64,000 nt of DNA from Limnephilus marmoratus. Lineage: Eukaryota; Arthropoda; Insecta; Trichoptera; Limnephilidae. The stretch covers positions 33,755,571 through 33,819,570 of the forward strand of contig OU862927.1 of assembly GCA_917880885.1 (NCBI GenBank), written 5' to 3'. The notes below the pieces were generated by a model, which ran no database searches, had not been told where the DNA came from, and saw only the letters and a list, made by a program, of their open reading frames with translations. Shown piece by piece: positions 4,588 to 64,000 of this stretch (positions are counted from its first letter, which is position 1; every line of letters starts with the position of its first letter). Both the position numbers and the translations under genes were made by a program.

Positions 4588-5142
4588 CATAGACATCCAA
4601 ATTTAATAGACGAGAACATACAGATGAGGGGAAAATTCAACTATGGCGGTAAAAAGAGGGGAAAGATGACTGTGATTCGTTAAAAAATCAATCTGACAGT
4701 ATACATATAGGCATCTCGCATTTCGCATTATAATGTCACCATTTAGTTCTTAAAAGTAAAATCTGCTGTTGAATGAATATTTTGTTGCCGTATTCAGTTA
4801 GGACACTTGTACAAATGTTTCATAATTTACTTACCCCTGTACCCAGCGACGAGCACACTGGAGAACCGCCCACATTCGTTATGATCGACATATTTTAGGG
4901 TGTAATGCATAGCGCACGCTTGCATTTTTGCCGTGTTATTTCGTAAAATGTACGATGCGAGCCCAACGCTGGTTGGGACAAGTATGACGACGTCACATTT
5001 TTTAGATTCAGGCTCTCGCTCTTGCTCTCGCTCTCGCTTCAGCTCTCGCAAGCCCAGCCGGTTCCAAGGAACCGGTATGGGGAGGGGGAAATAATACGCT
5101 TTTATCACTTAGGGCAGCTCTATATATATTCATATGTCTATG
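4588..5142 (+). mobile_element. hAT-type MITE, CATAGACAT family, copy 1
   Basis: Ends CATAGACATCC and CATATGTCTATG are inverted repeats. The flanking 8-mers aagaagaa / aggaagaa match at 7 of 8 positions. Four other copies in the window are at 10455, 13894, 19370 and 26670; three of these have perfect 8-bp duplications, as in hAT transposition. This copy has an expanded CTCTCG-rich tract at about 5010-5045, where the other copies have a short simple sequence. It interrupts the RNase H LINE. Confidence 0.8.
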
Positions 5143-5482
5143 AGGAAGAATAATTTTTACAATTGAAGAAGACATGGTCAAGAGTCTTCTCCTCCACACC
5201 GCGCTGGCAGAGTGGACTATCGAGGACTCAGATTATAAACAAATGAGCTGCAATAGAGCAGACATCAATTCTCATTCTCGAAATTCACTTGGAATATGAT
5301 TTTGAATTTCAGCTTAGAAAGATCCAGTTCAGGTTTTCGTATCAGTCCAATTTTCTTCCCGGGAACGAACGAGACATATTGGATTTAAGAACAGAGAAGA
5401 CGTCAGAGATAGGAATTTTAAAATCTAAAAGAATAGAACCAGATATTGTTCCAAGTTTAGCGAGAGAATCGACTTTCCGTTA

Positions 5483-5819
5483 AAGAAGGTTGCGTGTTCA
5501 TATCACGTCGGGGTCACCAATATGGGTGGGTATATTGACCTTACCAGGTATCAATACTTCCGTAAGTGTCACGGGGATTTGATAAATGATTAGAAGGCAT
5601 TAATTTAACAGATCCACTTTTTATTTTAATAGTCAAACACAATTGACGCGATACAATAATAAATTTCAGAAAGTTGCGAGGATCTGACAGCTGTAAACAC
5701 CAGGACACTTTGGACGGGAATGTCGAGCAGTAGAATTGGAAACTAAAGTTCGCTTGTCCGGTGTGACCAGCATTCAAATTGCCAGTACATACAATATATT
5801 GTACATTAAATAGTACTTT
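5483..5819 (-). mobile_element. LTR-like insert ending in a tRNA-Trp primer copy
   Basis: On the minus strand it starts TGGCAAAGTACTATTTAATG after the LINE sequence and runs about 295 bp. It ends ATACCCACCCA, then TAT, then TGGTGACCCCGACGTGAT and on through the complement of the tRNA-Trp 3' half to 5484. TG...CA ends followed by a primer-binding site is the 5' end of an LTR retrotransposon, but no gag or pol follows; the LINE resumes at once. That is what an integrated strong-stop cDNA would look like. A 4-6-bp duplication is not visible; only TA is shared by the two flanks. Confidence 0.6.
5484..5519 (+). other. 36-nt copy of tRNA-Trp nucleotides 41-76, including CCA
   Basis: The + strand reads AGAAGGTTGCGTG, TTCATAT, CACGTCGGGGTCA, CCA. 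Conserved animal tRNA-Trp, the primer of Rous sarcoma-type retroviruses, has the same sequence with TTCAAAT as the T-loop. The one difference is T for A at 5501, tRNA position 58. The CCA end is not encoded in eukaryotic tRNA genes, so the copy derives from a mature tRNA. Confidence 0.75.
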
Positions 5820-5945
5820 GCCATACCCTCAATACCTAGATGACCAGGGACCCAAACCAATATTGTCTCAAACTTGGCTTCGTTTAGAGAATTGATGTAA
5901 ACTAAACTTTCTAAATTATCAGAAGTAAGAGATTTTCTTGCCCAC

Positions 5946-10446: not shown

Positions 10447-10454
10447 ACTAAAAC

Positions 10455-11081
10455 CATAGATATCCGAATTTAATAGACCAGAAGATACAGATGAGGGGTA
10501 AAACCAAACTATGGGAGGGGAAGAGGGGAAAGATGACCGTGATTCTTTAAAAAATCAATCTGACAGAATATTGGCATCTTGCATTATAATATCACCATTT
10601 AGTTTTCTTAAAAGCAAAATCTGCTTTGAATGAATAGACCTTTTTACATGGGAGCGCGAATTGCTTGCCACGTTAAAAACATATTTGCGATGGCTAAATG
10701 CTCGCCCCGAAAAGCTTCACCTCTATTCACATAGCAATATTTTGTTGCCGTATTTAGTTAAGACACTTTTATAAATGTTTCATAATTTACTTACCCCTGT
10801 AACCAGTGACGAGCTCACTGGAGAAATGCCCACATTGGCTATGTTCTAGGTGGGTGTATAGCACAAGCTCTCATATATTGCCGTGTTATTTGGTAAACTG
10901 TATGGATGTTAGCTCTACGCTGGTCAGGACAAGAATGATGACGTCACATTTTTTTGATTCAAGCGAGGCTTTCGTAAGCCCAGCTGGCTCCAAGGAGGAG
11001 CTCTAGCCGGCTCCATGGGGAGGGGGAAATAATACGTTTTTTTTCACTTAGGGCAGGTCCAGATATATTCATATGTCCGTG
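10455..11081 (+). mobile_element. hAT-type MITE, CATAGACAT family, copy 2
   Basis: 627 bp from CATAGATATCC to ATATGTCCGTG with a perfect 8-bp duplication, actaaaac, at 10447-10454 and 11082-11089. It inserted into the TTAGG-associated repeat. Internal sequence matches the other copies throughout, including the GTAACCAGTGACGAGC and ATGACGTCACATTTTT segments. Confidence 0.85.
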
Positions 11082-13880: not shown

Positions 13881-13893
13881 ATACATTAAAAAA

Positions 13894-14485
13894 AGTGATA
13901 AAAACGTATTATTTCCCCCTCCCCATGGAGCCGGCTATAGCTCCGCCTTGCAGCCAGCTGGGCTTACGAAAGCCTCGCTTAAATAAATAAAAATGTGACG
14001 TCATCATTCTTGCCCTGACCAGCGTAGAGCTAACATCTATACATTTTACCAAATAACACAGCAATATATGAGAGCTTGTGCTATAAACCTACCTAGAACA
14101 TAGCGAATGTGGGCGTTTCTCCAGTGAGCTCGTCACTGGTTACAGGGGTAAGTAAATTATGAAACATTTGTAAAAGTGTCTTAACTAAATACGGCAACAA
14201 AATATTGTTATATGAATAAGGGGGAACCTTTTCGGGGCGAGTATTTGGCCATCGCAAATATGTTATTAACGTGGCAAGCAATTCGCGCTCCTATGTAAAA
14301 AGGTCTATTCATTCAAAGCAGATTTTGCTTTTAAGAACTAAATGGTGATATTATAATGCGAGATGCCTATATACTGTCAGATTGGTTTTTTAACGAATCA
14401 CAGTCATCTTTCCCCTTTTCCCCTCCCATAGTTTGGTTTTACCCTTCACCTGTATCTTCTGGTCTATTGAATTCGGATGTCTATG
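13894..14485 (-). mobile_element. hAT-type MITE, CATAGACAT family, copy 3 (end-truncated)
   Basis: Minus orientation. The 14485 end is intact (GGATGTCTATG), but the other terminus is missing where it meets the minisatellite, so no duplication can be read. The interior matches copies 2 and 4. Confidence 0.8.
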
Positions 14486-14489
14486 GGTA

Positions 14490-19361: not shown

Positions 19362-19369
19362 GACTCAAT

Positions 19370-19984
19370 CATAGACATCAGAATAAATAGACCAGAAGAT
19401 ACAGGTGAGGGGTAAAACCAAACTATGGGGGGTGAAGAGAGGAAAGATACTGTGATTCGTTGAAAGATCAATCTGACAGTATATAGGCATCTCGCATTAT
19501 AATATCACCATTTAGTTCTTAAAAGCAAAATCTGCTTTGAATGAATAGACCTTTTTACATGGGAGCGCGAATTGCTTGCCGCGTTAATAAACATATTTGC
19601 TAAGGCCAAATGCTTGCCCCAAAACATTCGCCCCAATTCACATAGCAATATTTTGTTGCCGTGTTTAGTTAAAACACTTTTACAAATGTTTCATAATTTA
19701 CTTACCCCTGTAACCAGCGACGAGCACACTGGAGAACCGCCCACATTCGCTATGTGCACATTGATATGTAGGTATATTGTATAGCACAAGCTACCGTTTT
19801 GGCGTGTTATTTCGTTAAATGTATGGATGTTAGCTTCGCGCTGGTCACGGCAAGAATGATGACGTCACACATTTTAGATCCAAGCGAGGCTCTATCCCCT
19901 CCCCATGGAGCGAGCCGGTTCCAAGGAGGGAAATAATACGTTTTTATCACTTAGGGCAGGTCCAGATATATTCATATGTCCGTG
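19370..19984 (+). mobile_element. hAT-type MITE, CATAGACAT family, copy 4
   Basis: Complete copy from CATAGACATCAG to ATATGTCCGTG with a perfect 8-bp duplication gactcaat (19362-19369, 19985-19992). Confidence 0.87.
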
Positions 19985-26722: not shown

Positions 26723-27103
26723 ATAGACCTGCCCTGAGTGATAAAAGCGTATTATTTCCCCCTCCCAATACCGATTCCATGGAACCGGCTGGGCTTACGA
26801 GAGCCTCGCTTGAATCTACAAAATGTGATGTCATCATTCTTGTCCGGACCAGCGTCGAGCTCACATCGTACATTTTACGAAATAACACGGCAAATATGGT
26901 AGCTTGTCCTATACATTATACCCGAAAATATGTCGATCATAACGAATGTGGGCGGTTCTCCAGTGTGCTCGTCGCTGGTTACAGGGGTACGTAAATTATG
27001 AAACATTTGTAAAAGTGTCTTAACTAAATACGGCAACAAAATATTCGTCTGTGAAAAGTGGCGAACTTTACTTTGCCGTATTTGAACTTCACAAATATGT
27101 TAA

Positions 27104-27267
27104 GGGAACGTACCCAAACTACGTGACCAACTTTTTGCAACTTTTAAACCCCCCCCCCCCCCCCGGTGACCAAAATCCTTAGGAACCCGCCGCTCATTTG
27201 TATGCAGCGTGACCTTTTGAAGACCCCCCCCCCCCCTAAAAGTGTCACGTAGTATGGGTACGTTCCC
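27104..27267. mobile_element. PIF/Harbinger-type MITE with C-runs, TAA duplication
   Basis: 164 bp with ends GGGAACGTACCC / GGGTACGTTCCC; ACTACGTGACC and GTCACGTAGT continue the arms. TAA flanks both ends (27101-27103, 27268-27270). It holds C-runs of 16 (27149-27164) and 13 (27224-27236). A second copy lies at about 37006-37150. Confidence 0.85.
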
Positions 27268-27500
27268 TAATAACGTGGCAAGCAATTCGCGCTCCCATGT
27301 AAACAGGTCTATTCATTCAAAAGCAGATTTTGCTTTTAAGAACTAAATGGTGATATTATAATGCGAGGTGCCTATATACTGTCATATTGATTTTTCAACG
27401 AATCACAGTCATCTTTCCCCTCTTCGTCCCCCCATAGTTTGGTTTTACCCCTCATCCTGTATCTTCTCGTCTATTAAATTTGGATGTCTATGATAAGGGG

Positions 27501-30081: not shown

Positions 30082-32544
30082 TTGTTTAGGAATAAATACA
30101 TCCCAAAACACGTAATCGCGTTATACTTTCATGATCTAACCACAAACTTTCCAAATGATATCTTCCTTTTAATTGGAGACTACAACATGCCTAATATCAG
30201 CTGGAACACCACACATCATCCCCGCGGTACTGACCTTTGCTCCACCACCCTCCTTAACTGCCTATCTTATTCGGATTTAAAACAATATAACCACATTCCA
30301 AATAGGCATGGTAGAACACTTGACTTAGTGCTCTGTAACACCGCAGTCTGCGTCTCTCCTGCCGACTCCCCTCTGGTTCAGGAGGACACACATCACATAT
30401 CCCTAATAGTCGAACTTAATATTTACGCCCCTACTTCTACTTCCCAGCCCCAAACGATCAAATTATTCAATAAAGTCAACTATGACCTAGTCAACGACGC
30501 TCTGTCAAAAACTGACTGGTCTTCTGTCTTAAACGCACAAGACGTCAACACGGCGGTTAACAGTTTTTACTTAATCATTGAGGCCGTAATTGATAACTTT
30601 GTTCCAAAGAAAATTCTGAAAACAAACACATTCCCAACGTGGTACTCATCGGCTCTTATCAATATTACAAAAGAAAAGCTCAAATTTTTTCGAGCCTGGA
30701 AACGCCACAAGAACCCACTAGATTACCAAACTTTTTCACTGCTCCGAAAACGACAAAAGAAAATCGCTACTCTCACATACCACAATTATATTTCACACTT
30801 AGAACATGCTATACAAAATAATGTAAAAAAAATATGGAGCTTTGTCAAAACGCAAAGAAAATCTCCTTCCATACCCGAACACCTAACATATGGCTCGAGA
30901 ATCGCACACAATAGTAAGGAGATTACCGATCTATTTGCTGACTATTTCTCTACCGTCTTCACTGATCACACCCAAAATTTAGCATCTGATATTCATGAAC
31001 CTGATCCGCTGAATAACATATCTATATCCTCAATTACAATCAACGACGACATTACCTACAAATATCTATCATCCATTGACATTAACAAAGGACCTGGTTT
31101 AGATAGTTTGCCTGGTATCTTCATACGTAACTGTAGTAAATATATCACTCCTCCGGTCAGTGCAATTTTCAAAAAATCACTAAGTGAAGGTACGTTTCCT
31201 CATAAGTGGAAGTCTGCCGTAATAACCCCCATTTTTAAAAAGGGTGACAAACATGACGTAACAAACTACAGACCTATCTCTCAACTTCCCATCTTAAGTA
31301 AAATTCTTGAAAAAATCGTTTACGACCAACTTTACCCGACTATCACCACAACAATTTCACAGAACCAACACGGATTCATGAAAAATCGGTCTACAACATC
31401 TAACCTTGCCCTATTTGTCAACTATTTGCAGAGCAATATGGACGAAAGGGTGCAGGTCGATGCTATGTACACCGACTTCTCAAAGGCCTTCGACCGCGTT
31501 ATCCACTCAATTCTGTTAAATAAACTCACTCGTCTTGGAATACACGGTGACTTGTTTAGATGGATTAAATCATACATTAGCAATCGTAGTCAAGTTATCT
31601 CAATAAATGGAGTTTTATCTAAAATAATCAACGTAACCTCGGGAGTCCCTCAGGGTTCCCACCTTGGTCCGCTCTTCTTTAATATATACTTAAACGACAT
31701 AGGCTCATGTTTCCAATACTCTAAATTTTTATTGTTTGCAGATGACATGAAAATTTACAAAACGGTTCGCTCTCTATCGGACTGTAAAGAGCTACAAAGT
31801 GACTTAGATAGGCTCTGCAACTATTGCACAGCTAATTATTTAGACCTCAATGTTTCTAAATGCCACACTATGTCCTTTACTAGAAACAAGCATCAAATTA
31901 ACTTCTCATATTCACTCTGCGATGAACCCGTGATCTCAAAAAATGAATGTAAGGACCTTGGAGTCTATTTAGATAGTAAACTTATATTTAAAACGCATAT
32001 TGATTCAATCACCGATAGATCTTACAAAATGTTGGGTTTTATACTACGTCTGAGTAAATTATTTAGAAATCCACATACTCTAGTAATGCTTTACTCCTCA
32101 CTAGTCAGAAGTCCACTGGAATTTGCATCGCCTGTCTGGAATCCCAAATACACCCAATACGTCAACAACATAGAGCGCATACAAAATAAATTTATTAAGT
32201 ATCTCGGTTATAAATACAACAATAATTACATTTGCACTCTCCAATCCCTGAAATCCAGGCGAACGGTAGCTGACATGACATTTCTCCATAAAATTATAGA
32301 TAACGAAATAGACTGCCCAGAACTTCTATCCCAAATAAATTTTAACATCCCATCTAAAAGAACTCGCCACGCCAACCTTTTTTACACAACCAGTAATAAT
32401 ACGAACGCTGCAGCCAACTCCCCCATTTCCCGCATCCTTCAAAGTTTCAACTCTATTCAAAAAACCACAAATACAGATATATTTTTTGATTCCCTCCCTC
32501 TATTTAAGAAAAACATTTTTAGCACACTGAACTCGCACACATAA
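30082..32544 (+). CDS. LINE ORF2: endonuclease remnant plus complete reverse transcriptase
   Basis: This 820-codon open frame encodes the replication enzyme of a non-LTR retrotransposon. At the N-terminus, residues 28-38 (FLLIGDYNMPN) are the GD.N part of the AP-type endonuclease; the rest of that domain is lost, so the first codon is not a real start. RT motifs follow in order: YRPISQLPILSKILEKIV, YTDFSKAFDRV (463-473), SGVPQGSHLGPLFFNIYLND (from 520) and FADDMKIYK (552-560, catalytic Asp pair 554-555). The thumb region has CKDLGVYLDSK, SSLVRSPLEFASPVWNPKY and NIERIQNKFIKYLGY. The motifs suggest a CR1/Jockey-group element; the exact clade needs a tree. No stop or frameshift is visible, so the insertion is probably young. 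Confidence 0.9.
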   Translation: MFRNKYIPKHVIALYFHDLTTNFPNDIFLLIGDYNMPNISWNTTHHPRGTDLCSTTLLNCLSYSDLKQYNHIPNRHGRTLDLVLCNTAVCVSPADSPLVQEDTHHISLIVELNIYAPTSTSQPQTIKLFNKVNYDLVNDALSKTDWSSVLNAQDVNTAVNSFYLIIEAVIDNFVPKKILKTNTFPTWYSSALINITKEKLKFFRAWKRHKNPLDYQTFSLLRKRQKKIATLTYHNYISHLEHAIQNNVKKIWSFVKTQRKSPSIPEHLTYGSRIAHNSKEITDLFADYFSTVFTDHTQNLASDIHEPDPLNNISISSITINDDITYKYLSSIDINKGPGLDSLPGIFIRNCSKYITPPVSAIFKKSLSEGTFPHKWKSAVITPIFKKGDKHDVTNYRPISQLPILSKILEKIVYDQLYPTITTTISQNQHGFMKNRSTTSNLALFVNYLQSNMDERVQVDAMYTDFSKAFDRVIHSILLNKLTRLGIHGDLFRWIKSYISNRSQVISINGVLSKIINVTSGVPQGSHLGPLFFNIYLNDIGSCFQYSKFLLFADDMKIYKTVRSLSDCKELQSDLDRLCNYCTANYLDLNVSKCHTMSFTRNKHQINFSYSLCDEPVISKNECKDLGVYLDSKLIFKTHIDSITDRSYKMLGFILRLSKLFRNPHTLVMLYSSLVRSPLEFASPVWNPKYTQYVNNIERIQNKFIKYLGYKYNNNYICTLQSLKSRRTVADMTFLHKIIDNEIDCPELLSQINFNIPSKRTRHANLFYTTSNNTNAAANSPISRILQSFNSIQKTTNTDIFFDSLPLFKKNIFSTLNSHT

Positions 32545-61985: not shown

Positions 61986-64000
61986 TTAGGTATTTGGACT
62001 GGATTTAAATATGTCTAAAAGTGGCGAGCGAATTATATTTGTTTGTTCATTAATTAAAATAGCTTTCTGATTATTAGAGTTTTTATTAATTTCTAACTGC
62101 TCTAACAGATTGAGTTTGCGTCCCTTATTTTGTAAGTGGAACGGAAATGGTTTATTATTATCACTAAGTGAGTGATTGTTTTCTAAGAGATGTTTAGCAA
62201 ATTGTGATTCTATTTTATTATTATTTTTAAACGATCGCATGTGTTCTTTGAATCTAGTGTTAAGGGACCGGCCGGTTTGTCCAACATAAACAGCGTTGCA
62301 TTCATCACACTGGAGTTTATAAATGCCACTATTTTTTAGTTTGGGTATTTTTTTTTTTGAGTTTTTAAGAGACGATCCTAAAGTATTATTTGTGCGGAAG
62401 GAAACACCTAAGCCACAATTTTTGAGAACTTTAGCTATTTTATTAGATGTCGGTCCGACAAATTCCAAACATCCAAATTTATTATTTGTTTTATTGTTAG
62501 TCGCTGGGTAAATTAAGTTAAGGTTATTTTTGTGTTTTTTGTGACTAATTATTTTTTTAATGTCTCTACCCTTGAAGCCGTTATTTTTAGCAATAGTTAG
62601 AATTGTATTTTTTTCCCTCTCGTAAGCCATATTGTCAAGCGGGATGTTGGTAAGTCTATGTATCATTGAGCGGTAAGCGGATAATTTATGTGACCATGGG
62701 TGCAAAGATTTATAATTAATGGTCCTGTCGGTAAACTTAGGCTTACGGAAAATTTCAAAAGTATGTTTATTATTTTCTCTACCGATTGTTAAATCTAAGA
62801 AGTTGATTTTCTTATTACACTCCCTTTCAACCGTAAAGCAGATTTTACGGTTGATGGAGTTGGCTAAAGTAACAAAAAGATCTAGTTGTCTGTTGGTACC
62901 TTGCCAAAATAATAAATAATAATAATAAATAAATAATAATAAGAATATCATCAACATAACGAACGTAGTATATTATGTATTTACTAAAGATTGAATTTAA
63001 AATTTGTTTTTCAATATAGTCCATGAATATTTCGGCAAGAAGGGGACTGAGGGGGGACCCCATGGGCAAGCCATCGTTTTGTTGGTAGAATTTACCATTA
63101 AATATAAAATAGTTAGTTTCAACACATATTTTAAAGAGATCGAATAAGTCTTTTTTTATGATTGTGTTAATGTTGGATTTTTCTAGTATATCTTCTATGA
63201 TTTTAGGGCACTCTTGGATAGGGACATTGCTAAAAAGGCCTTACTACGTCTAAAGATAAAAATTGACAGTTGTGCGGGAGATCTAAGTTTTGTATTTTAT
63301 TTATAAGTTCTAGAGAATTTTTGACGCTATGTATTGGAGAGAATTTAGTATATTTTTTAAAAAGAAAATTAAGTTTTTTGGCGAGTATCGTCGTTGGGGC
63401 ATTTATAAAGGAAACGACCGGTCGGAAGGGAATATTTTCTTTATGTGTTTTAGGTTGCCCGTATAGTGCAGGAGCCCTCGGATTCATTACCATTGCACTT
63501 CTTCTAGCATATTTATTTATGAAAATTGATTTGCAATTATTTATTAGGTTGCGTACTTTTATTGACATTTTGTCCGTCGGATCCTTTTTTAAGATTTCAA
63601 AATCTTCTGGCTTCAGGAATGCTTCTACTTTATTTGTGCAATCGTCTTTGTTTAATATAACTACCGAATTTCCCTTATCCGCCTTAGTAATAGTAAGGTC
63701 GCAATTTTAAATTTTAGTTTTAATATCATTTAAAATTTCCGTTTCTTTATTACTGAATTTATTTTTAAAGTTGTTGGTTGATTTCAAAGTTTTCCTCAAG
63801 ATATCTGCGGTTATTTGCTTCGGTAGGCCGTTATTTTTAATTTTTGAAAGAGAAATTTCCGTATCAATTGCCAAATATTCAATTTGTTTTTTAGTGATAT
63901 CCGAATTTATTTTATATTTAAAGCCTTTATCTAATAAATTTATTTCATCTTTTTCAAAGATTGCGTCTGATAGGTTAATAGTTTTTTGGTAAAATTCAAT
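61986..64000 (-). pseudogene. Penelope-like element: reverse transcriptase and GIY-YIG endonuclease (runs off the window)
   Basis: Minus strand, from 64000 down. EIS and KNNGLPKQITADI lie in the upstream N-terminal region; then LTITKADKGNSVVILNKDDC, PALYGQPKTHKENIPFRPVV, FLSLDVV (RT motif A), GLPMGSPLSPLLAEIFMDY (motif B), YYVRYVDDILII (motif C), WQGTNRQLDLFV, FLDLTIGR and KPKFTDRTINYKSLHPWSHK (thumb). The GIY-YIG nuclease follows: GIYKLQCDECNAVYVGQTGR, then LNTRFKEHMR. This is the standard Penelope order; the enzyme primes at nicks made by its GIY-YIG domain. Lesions are a TAA at 63707-63709, a frameshift near 63235 and a microsatellite-linked shift near 62910. Inactive. Confidence 0.88.
62905..62945. 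repeat. (AAT)n microsatellite inside the Penelope RT
   Basis: AATAATAAATAATAATAATA and similar, between YVDDILII and WQGTNRQ codons. The triplet run changes the frame. Confidence 0.85.

What the first reader, a model, noticed from the sequence alone, without database searches (positions are those of the whole stretch)
5483..5819. Fossil strong-stop cDNA: LTR-like DNA joined to 36 nt of tRNA-Trp with a change exactly at the m1A58 site
Seen: 5484-5519 equals nucleotides 41-76 of conserved animal tRNA-Trp including CCA, with one mismatch (T for A) at 5501, which is tRNA position 58. It adjoins about 295 bp with TG/CA-type ends, in the position of a primer-binding site. LINE sequence resumes directly beyond, with no gag or pol. 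Known: tRNA-Trp primes some retroelements; eukaryotic tRNA genes lack CCA; m1A58 normally stops plus-strand strong-stop synthesis after 18 nt and induces misincorporation. Inference: the RT read through m1A58, misincorporated there, went on to the anticodon stem, and the product was inserted.
Basis: partly seen in the sequence, partly recalled or inferred. Interest (0 to 1): 0.87.

Follow-up and report, generated by a model that had tools for sequence, protein, structure and literature searches.

The report
LTRs fused to copied tRNA primers
This animal genome holds many LTR retrotransposon ends fused to DNA copies of their tRNA primer, and the copies vary in base at the one place where that tRNA normally carries a methylated adenine, as expected if ancient reverse transcriptase read through the modification and misread it.

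Summary
Window 5484-5519 is nt 41-76 of tRNA-Trp with CCA, differing only at nt 58, beside an LTR (5521-5825, minus strand, 305 bp, ends TATGG/CCATA). It is not unique: the PBS-proximal 31 nt have 363 places in the same genome at up to 2 mismatches. In 72 curated copies from 19-37 LTR-end groups, depending on the clustering rule, nt 58 departs from the faithful base in 46 (C23, A20, G3), against 9 of 756 cells at unselected positions. The spectrum agrees with the published m1A-A signature. The tRNA copy ends at nt 38, just before G37, in 20 of 48 copies that reach it. Relatives show inverted LTR pairs and LTR-tRNA-LTR-tip forms with integrase-type 4-bp duplications. One relative carries the CsRn1-clade Gag motif. 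Best reading: plus-strand strong-stop DNA that read past m1A58, missed normal second-strand transfer and was integrated or joined to target DNA. Weak points: no host tRNA-Trp gene was found; the window copy has no target duplication; its empty site was not confirmed. My own idea of a second misreading at nt 26 was dropped.

The parts
5521..5825 (-). LTR, 305 bp, ends TATGG...CCATA; U3 tip at 5825, U5 end at 5521
   Evidence: alignment of 23 copies from 21 loci, 39 loci; LTR ends fixed by 4-bp duplications around L008, L011, L025
5520..5520 (-). one-base spacer between LTR and tRNA-derived segment
5484..5519 (-). 36 nt complementary to tRNA-Trp nt 41-76 (cDNA of the primer tRNA, CCA included)
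5501..5501 (-). tRNA nt 58 (m1A58 site): A in the cDNA strand instead of T
   Evidence: the same site departs from T in 46 of 72 curated copies
5483..5483 (.). single filler or ambiguous base at the tRNA end of the insert
   Evidence: sequence; depends on an inferred empty site that was not confirmed
5340..5482 (-). flank: interrupted non-LTR element, part downstream of the insert (RKVDSLAKLGT...)
   Evidence: family assignment from a recalled motif, Pfam negative
5826..5945 (-). flank: same non-LTR element, part upstream of the insert (...VWVPGHLGIEG)
   Evidence: Pfam negative

Best explanation
The insert is a fossil of failed LTR-retrotransposon reverse transcription by a tRNA-Trp-primed element, probably of the CsRn1/Kabuki clade of Ty3/gypsy. 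Plus-strand strong-stop DNA copied the LTR and then the tRNA primer still attached to the minus strand. Instead of halting after 18 nt at m1A58, the polymerase read through, often inserting C or A opposite m1A, and tended to stop before nt 37. Such a product does not match the primer-binding site for normal second-strand transfer. Its 3' end was therefore joined or template-switched elsewhere: to a second LTR in inverted orientation, to the U5 tip of the far LTR, to an internal site, or, as in the window, straight to target DNA. Molecules with two LTR tips were inserted by integrase with 4-bp duplications; copies like the window's keep the U3 tip but show no duplication. Shown: the sequences, the nt-58 variability, the preferred end, the duplications. 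Inferred: the order of steps, the chemistry at nt 58 and 37, and the joining mechanism.
For: 363 genome places of the 31-mer with nt 58 free, 0 for the reversed control; the 100 listed, all exact, have T45 C27 A22 G6. 72 curated copies: 46 non-T at nt 58 against 12 of 751 cells at unselected positions (Fisher p 2.5e-45), or 9 of 756 with U26 in the template. They fall into 37 LTR-end clusters by a strict rule (13 of 17 multi-member clusters hold more than one base, hand count) or 19 by a loose rule (9 of 11 mixed; 14 of 19 hold a non-T). Window family, not selected on tRNA: 7 of 12 at nt 58 against 14 of 458 (hand count). With nt 58 fixed, 21 of 49 listed single-mismatch rows fall at nt 58, 22 at nt 47 (probably one lineage), 6 over the other 29 positions (hand count). 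Spectrum C23 A20 G3 in cDNA means little C in template sense, as published for m1A-A (PMC4787781, passages). Ends: 20 of 48 copies reaching nt 38 stop there (0.42), against 0-0.13 at nt 39-45 and 0-0.12 at nt 30-37, in 11 of 19 loose groups. 4-bp duplications: inverted pairs with 35 nt or more of tRNA L007, L011, L051, L060, L061; inverted pairs with less or no tRNA L028, L032, and L024 with one mismatch; LTR-tRNA-U5-tip L006, L014; two-LTR mini-element L062. Relative L038 has CX2HX9CX3C and a protease match below the curated cut-off; L054 has protease then RT.
Against: No host tRNA-Trp gene was found, so A58 and G37 in the gene are assumed. Of 12 window-family loci with 35 nt or more of tRNA, 8 (L002, L003, L004, L010, L012, L013, L015, L016) show no convincing duplication within about 1.5 kb, so integration is not shown for them. 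A generic duplication search in L041-L070 did not separate from its control (20 of 30 loci, control mean 16.9). L041, an inverted pair with 346-bp arms 100% identical, has no clear duplication. Copies that pass nt 37 read it faithfully (C25, T1), so m1G37 as the cause of the stop is only inferred; one LTR group of five runs past nt 37 in every copy while another of four stops at nt 38 in every copy. Stops at nt 25-29 are also common (14 of 72; 4 of 8 reaching nt 26), without an assigned cause. 26 of 72 copies have the faithful base at nt 58. The 31-mer requires read-through to nt 46, so it says nothing on how often read-through happens. On the LTR tree the tRNA-bearing label is not more scattered than shuffled labels, and gain cannot be told from loss.
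Confidence: 0.82

Rival explanations
1. The 36-39 nt are an ordinary extended primer-binding region of full-length elements; lone copies are deletion remnants and nt 58 is merely unconstrained.
For: 12 of 88 rows share an internal sequence after 39 nt of tRNA (one LTR family); L062 is a two-LTR element with 39 nt; one lineage with nt-47 G makes up 22 of 49 listed single-mismatch rows. Some copies could have inherited the tRNA part.
Against: Lack of constraint would raise all positions beyond nt 59, but nt 58 stands out (46 of 72 against 9 of 756). Near-junction flanks of 41 window-family copies are shared only within one duplication (L016), among inverted-pair arms, between L020 and L038, and in two short matches (L003/L021, L015/L027). 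Ends pile up at nt 38 and the spectrum matches m1A-A.
Confidence: 0.08
2. A LINE-type reverse transcriptase jumped from an LTR transcript onto the 3' end of tRNA-Trp and the chimera was inserted by target-primed reverse transcription.
For: The insert lies inside non-LTR sequence, and end-to-end template jumping is known for such enzymes (recalled). L004 has AT-rich similarity near both ends (by eye).
Against: The tRNA joins at the primer-binding position in all 19 loose LTR-end groups. The U3 tip of the window family is kept and relatives have 4-bp duplications. Inverted and mini two-LTR forms fit LTR-element replication.
Confidence: 0.04
3. nt 58 varies because the host has several tRNA-Trp genes that differ at nt 58.
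For: No host tRNA-Trp gene could be located, so the gene sequence is unknown.
Against: A58 is very strongly conserved (recalled). Three further bases occur, within single LTR groups too, in the ratio known for m1A-A.
Confidence: 0.05

Closest known systems
CsRn1/Kabuki clade of Ty3/gypsy LTR retrotransposons (PMC2582038, passages read)
   Same: tRNA-Trp primer-binding site, 4-bp duplication, Gag motif CX2HX9CX3C in relative L038, PR-RT order in L054
   Different: The window copy has only one LTR and the copied tRNA; no coding region, no second LTR, no duplication
HIV-1 plus-strand strong-stop products P1-P5 (review PMC13191261, passages read)
   Same: Stops at m1A58 and, as a minor product, at the modified nt 37; synthesis extends beyond A58 when the methylating enzyme is mutated
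   Different: There they are in vitro or cell products, and the figure legend says that only P2-P4 serve as active templates, not the one ending at nt 37; here equivalents are found in chromosomes, some with integrase-type duplications and one in a two-LTR mini-element (L062)
PBS mutations in mouse endogenous retroviruses (PMC7472051, passages read)
   Same: The authors asked whether misreading of tRNA modifications explains PBS mutations
   Different: They found no match to known modification positions; here the match to nt 58 is strong
Culex cqgypsy_1 with two tRNAs head to head in the PBS region (PMC3286476, passages read)
   Same: LTR element with CCA-bearing tRNA sequence at the PBS
   Different: Described there as a putative Twin insertion of two tRNAs (Lys, Glu), not read-through of the primer

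Membership tests
CsRn1 clade (for the window's LTR family) | tRNA-Trp primer-binding site | tested here: inconclusive
   36 nt of tRNA-Trp complement at the PBS position of the window copy, but that part is a copy of the tRNA; the relatives with internal sequence, L020 and L038, read TTGGTGATCCGATTTTT before it (L038 after a partial TTGGTGACCCTCGACG)
CsRn1 clade (for the window's LTR family) | 4-bp target site duplication | tested here: met
   L007, L008, L011, L025, L028, L032 and, with U5 tip, L006, L014; not seen for the window copy itself
CsRn1 clade (for the window's LTR family) | Gag motif CX2HX9CX3C | tested here: met
   CYYHARFGDNARKCLKPC in L038 downstream of an LTR of the same family; one relative only
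CsRn1 clade (for the window's LTR family) | Pol phylogeny inside the clade | not tested
   No Pol tree was built; the L020 integrase-like stretch gave no Pfam family
Read-through plus-strand strong-stop DNA | LTR then tRNA copied beyond nt 59 from the mature, CCA-bearing tRNA | tested here: met
Read-through plus-strand strong-stop DNA | Misincorporation at the m1A58 site | tested here: met
   as a population: 46 of 72 against 9 of 756; for the single window copy, mutation is not excluded
Read-through plus-strand strong-stop DNA | Host tRNA-Trp gene has A58 and the tRNA carries m1A58 and a modified nt 37 | not testable with these tools
   No host gene located; modification needs RNA
Integrase-mediated insertion (window copy) | 4-bp duplication | tested here: not met
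   AGGG on the U3 side is not repeated next to the tRNA end, nor after an LTR tip within about 1.5 kb

The most novel reading that the evidence does not exclude
The genome is a readable archive of a host tRNA's modification state: many independent reverse-transcription events wrote the misreading spectrum of m1A58 and the stop before nt 37 of primer tRNA-Trp into chromosomes. Read-through past m1A58 is a standing route by which tRNA-Trp-primed elements make short, integrase-competent derivatives, including inverted LTR pairs, and the point where copying ends may differ between element families.
Probability: 0.6. Interest if true: 0.85.

Novelty: new variant of a known kind. Interest (0 to 1): 0.75.

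Why it matters
Strong-stop products are normally studied as transient cDNAs. If these are their integrated fossils, assembled genomes can show where reverse transcriptase met modified tRNA bases, with what bases it misread them, and what became of products that failed second-strand transfer. A review of mouse endogenous retroviruses looked for such a mark in the PBS and did not find it (PMC7472051, passages). The inverted LTR pairs with 4-bp duplications also suggest a simple origin for short LTR-bounded elements with little or no internal sequence.

Tried and rejected
Rejected: a lone fossil. Rejected: misreading of m2,2G26. Copies that pass nt 26 read A in cDNA (3 of 4), but the six genome matches to the D-arm/anticodon pattern all have T26 in tRNA sense and are, or look like, retro-copies, so U26 in the primer is the simpler reading. 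Dropped on re-check: the remark that the base after an nt-38 end is never the templated C, which is true by construction of the end rule. Not settled: a snapback at the anticodon arm as origin of the inverted pairs (L070 shows a short foldback; other junctions differ). Uninformative: generic duplication scan. Negative: IMG/VR scans with the 36-mer and 18-mer, phage and plasmid searches, ARAGORN (bacterial setting) and Rfam on the window, Pfam on the interrupted non-LTR pieces and on the L020 stretch. The single bacterial hit (L001) was not followed. The script stopped with an error after L024. Never answered: search for the uninterrupted non-LTR relative. Not run: other primer tRNAs. In print: the rows listed by searches (capped lists, for example 15 of 262 papers; titles and abstract openings seen) name no paper on integrated LTR-tRNA read-through copies or an m1A58 mark in genomic PBS sequences. 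Six papers were opened, passages only: PMC13191261, PMC7472051, PMC2582038, PMC12471100, PMC3286476, PMC4787781.

Full report
What is there. Read on the minus strand, window 5825 to 5484 is an LTR of 305 bp (TATGG...CCATA), one spacer base, then 36 nt complementary to tRNA-Trp nt 76-41 with the CCA end. The only difference is at nt 58 (window 5501). Non-LTR coding-like sequence continues on both sides; its RNase H label is a recalled motif that Pfam did not confirm.

It is one of many. The window lies in a 1.63-Gb genome of 67 contigs; the insert has 44 matches, with 40 of 489 candidates scored. I read 39 loci of this LTR family. The 31-nt PBS-proximal tRNA sequence, nt 58 left free, has 363 places with up to 2 mismatches and none for the reversed control. 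The listing shows 100, all exact: T45 C27 A22 G6 at nt 58. Among the loci held I read 94 distinct copies of the exact sequence; 6 near-duplicates were dropped, leaving 88. I set aside 12 rows of one LTR family with a shared internal sequence and 5 tandem rows (one row is in both groups), leaving 72. By the last 20 nt of the LTR these fall into 37 clusters; that rule splits the window's own family, and a looser rule on the last 60 nt gives 19 groups.

The nt-58 mark. In the 72, the cDNA base is T26 C23 A20 G3. Positions not used in selection (nt 45 downward) mismatch in 12 of 751 cells with G26 in the template (Fisher p 2.5e-45), or 9 of 756 with U26. Groups are mixed: 13 of 17 multi-member clusters by the strict rule (hand count), 9 of 11 by the loose rule. 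The window family was found by LTR similarity, not by tRNA sequence: of its 12 loci with 35 nt or more of tRNA, 7 depart at nt 58 and 14 of 458 other cells depart (hand count, whose script stopped with an error after L024). With nt 58 fixed and one mismatch allowed there are 173 places; of the 49 listed single-mismatch rows 21 are at nt 58, 22 at nt 47, 6 elsewhere (hand count); the nt-47 group looks like one element lineage. The spectrum (few G in cDNA, so little C in template sense) is what PMC4787781 reports for m1A followed by A (passages); A59 follows A58 here.

The ends. Of 48 copies that reach nt 38, 20 end there; the stop fraction is 0 to 0.13 at nt 39-45 and 0 to 0.12 at nt 30-37 (stops before nt 46 cannot be seen in this sample). 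Ends at nt 38 occur in 11 of 19 loose groups, but one group of four always stops there and one group of five always runs past it, so the end may depend on the element. Animal tRNA-Trp has m1G37 (recalled); a minor HIV-1 product also stops at modified nt 37 (PMC13191261, passages). Copies that go past nt 37 mostly read it faithfully (C25, T1), so I treat the cause as likely, not shown. A further 14 of 72 end at nt 25-29, without an assigned cause.

What became of the products. Window family, inverted LTR pairs with matching 4-bp duplications: L007 (ATAT) and L011 (GACT) with 35-39 nt of tRNA between the LTRs; L032 (GAGG) and L024 (ACTG/ACAG, one mismatch) with 18 and 14 nt of the PBS; L028 (GGAG) with truncated arms and no PBS. 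An LTR, tRNA and the U5 tip of a second LTR with duplication: L006 (AGTG) and L014 (CTAT). Solo LTRs with duplication: L008 and L025. Other LTR families: inverted L051 (CAAG), L060 (ATAC, the second arm only a U3 tip), L061 (GTAA), the two-LTR mini-element L062 (CTAG); L041 is inverted without a clear duplication and L122 has too little flank. L054 has 50 nt of tRNA followed by a protease-RT frame. Of the 12 window-family loci with 35 nt or more of tRNA, 4 have a duplication and 8, the window's among them, do not (a distant match in one of the two L016 copies was taken as chance). Their U3 tip reads TATGG in 7 of 8; L012 has TGTGG. This fits failed second-strand transfer: the extra tRNA letters do not match beyond the primer-binding site, so the end is joined elsewhere; two LTR tips let integrase finish, one tip does not. 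The joining step is inference.

Independence. On a tree of 41 LTR sequences the 14 tRNA-bearing rows need 10 changes, at least 7 forced by supported branches; shuffled labels give a mean of 11.8, 81 of 500 as low. Gain versus loss cannot be told from this; the mixture of bases at nt 58 within groups is the better argument for separate events.

Family. CsRn1-clade elements share a tRNA-Trp PBS, a 4-bp duplication and Gag CX2HX9CX3C (PMC2582038, passages). The window family shows the duplication, and L038 has the Gag motif. The PBS of the relatives with internal sequence, L020 and L038, reads TTGGTGATCCG, a mismatch to tRNA-Trp that remains unexplained. No Pol tree was made, so membership is likely, not established.

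What remains open. No host tRNA-Trp gene was found. None of the 40 scored matches (of 142 candidates) to a Drosophila-type gene spans all 72 nt, and the three best are the copies L041, L119 and L090. The six matches to the primer's D-arm/anticodon pattern are, or look like, retro-copies. Empty site and other primer tRNAs were not tested because the genome search stayed busy.

Noticed in passing
G000 (whole genome), searches: No tRNA-Trp gene that matches the primer was found; the six matches to its D-arm and anticodon arm are, or look like, retro-copies. The gene may be missing, withheld or divergent in the assembly.
   Followed up: partly
L131, L132, L133: Further tRNA-Trp retro-copies with much of the tRNA; L131 lacks about nt 41-57 as if the polymerase had hopped, and all three read T (tRNA sense) at nt 58.
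   Followed up: partly
groups (L041, L045, L054, L070 and one more; L061, L068, L120, L124): The end point of the tRNA copy seems to follow the LTR family: one group always runs past nt 37, another always ends at nt 38. Perhaps the reverse transcriptases differ.
   Followed up: no
window 61986-62957 (minus): 323-aa ORF with a weak GIY-YIG match (Pfam E 0.0005, below the curated cut-off), perhaps a Penelope-like element.
   Followed up: no
window 30082-32544 (plus): 820-aa ORF with a reverse transcriptase domain and an endonuclease-like match just under its cut-off, a non-LTR element with a long open frame.
   Followed up: no
window 4588-5138 and 10452-11081, 13893-14486, 19367-19984, 26723-27494: Dispersed repeat family within the window, pairs of pieces 74-93% identical; one copy ends next to the interrupted non-LTR sequence.
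   Followed up: no
L016: Two tRNA-bearing copies of the window's LTR family 2.76 kb apart with near-identical flanks, a local duplication.
   Followed up: partly
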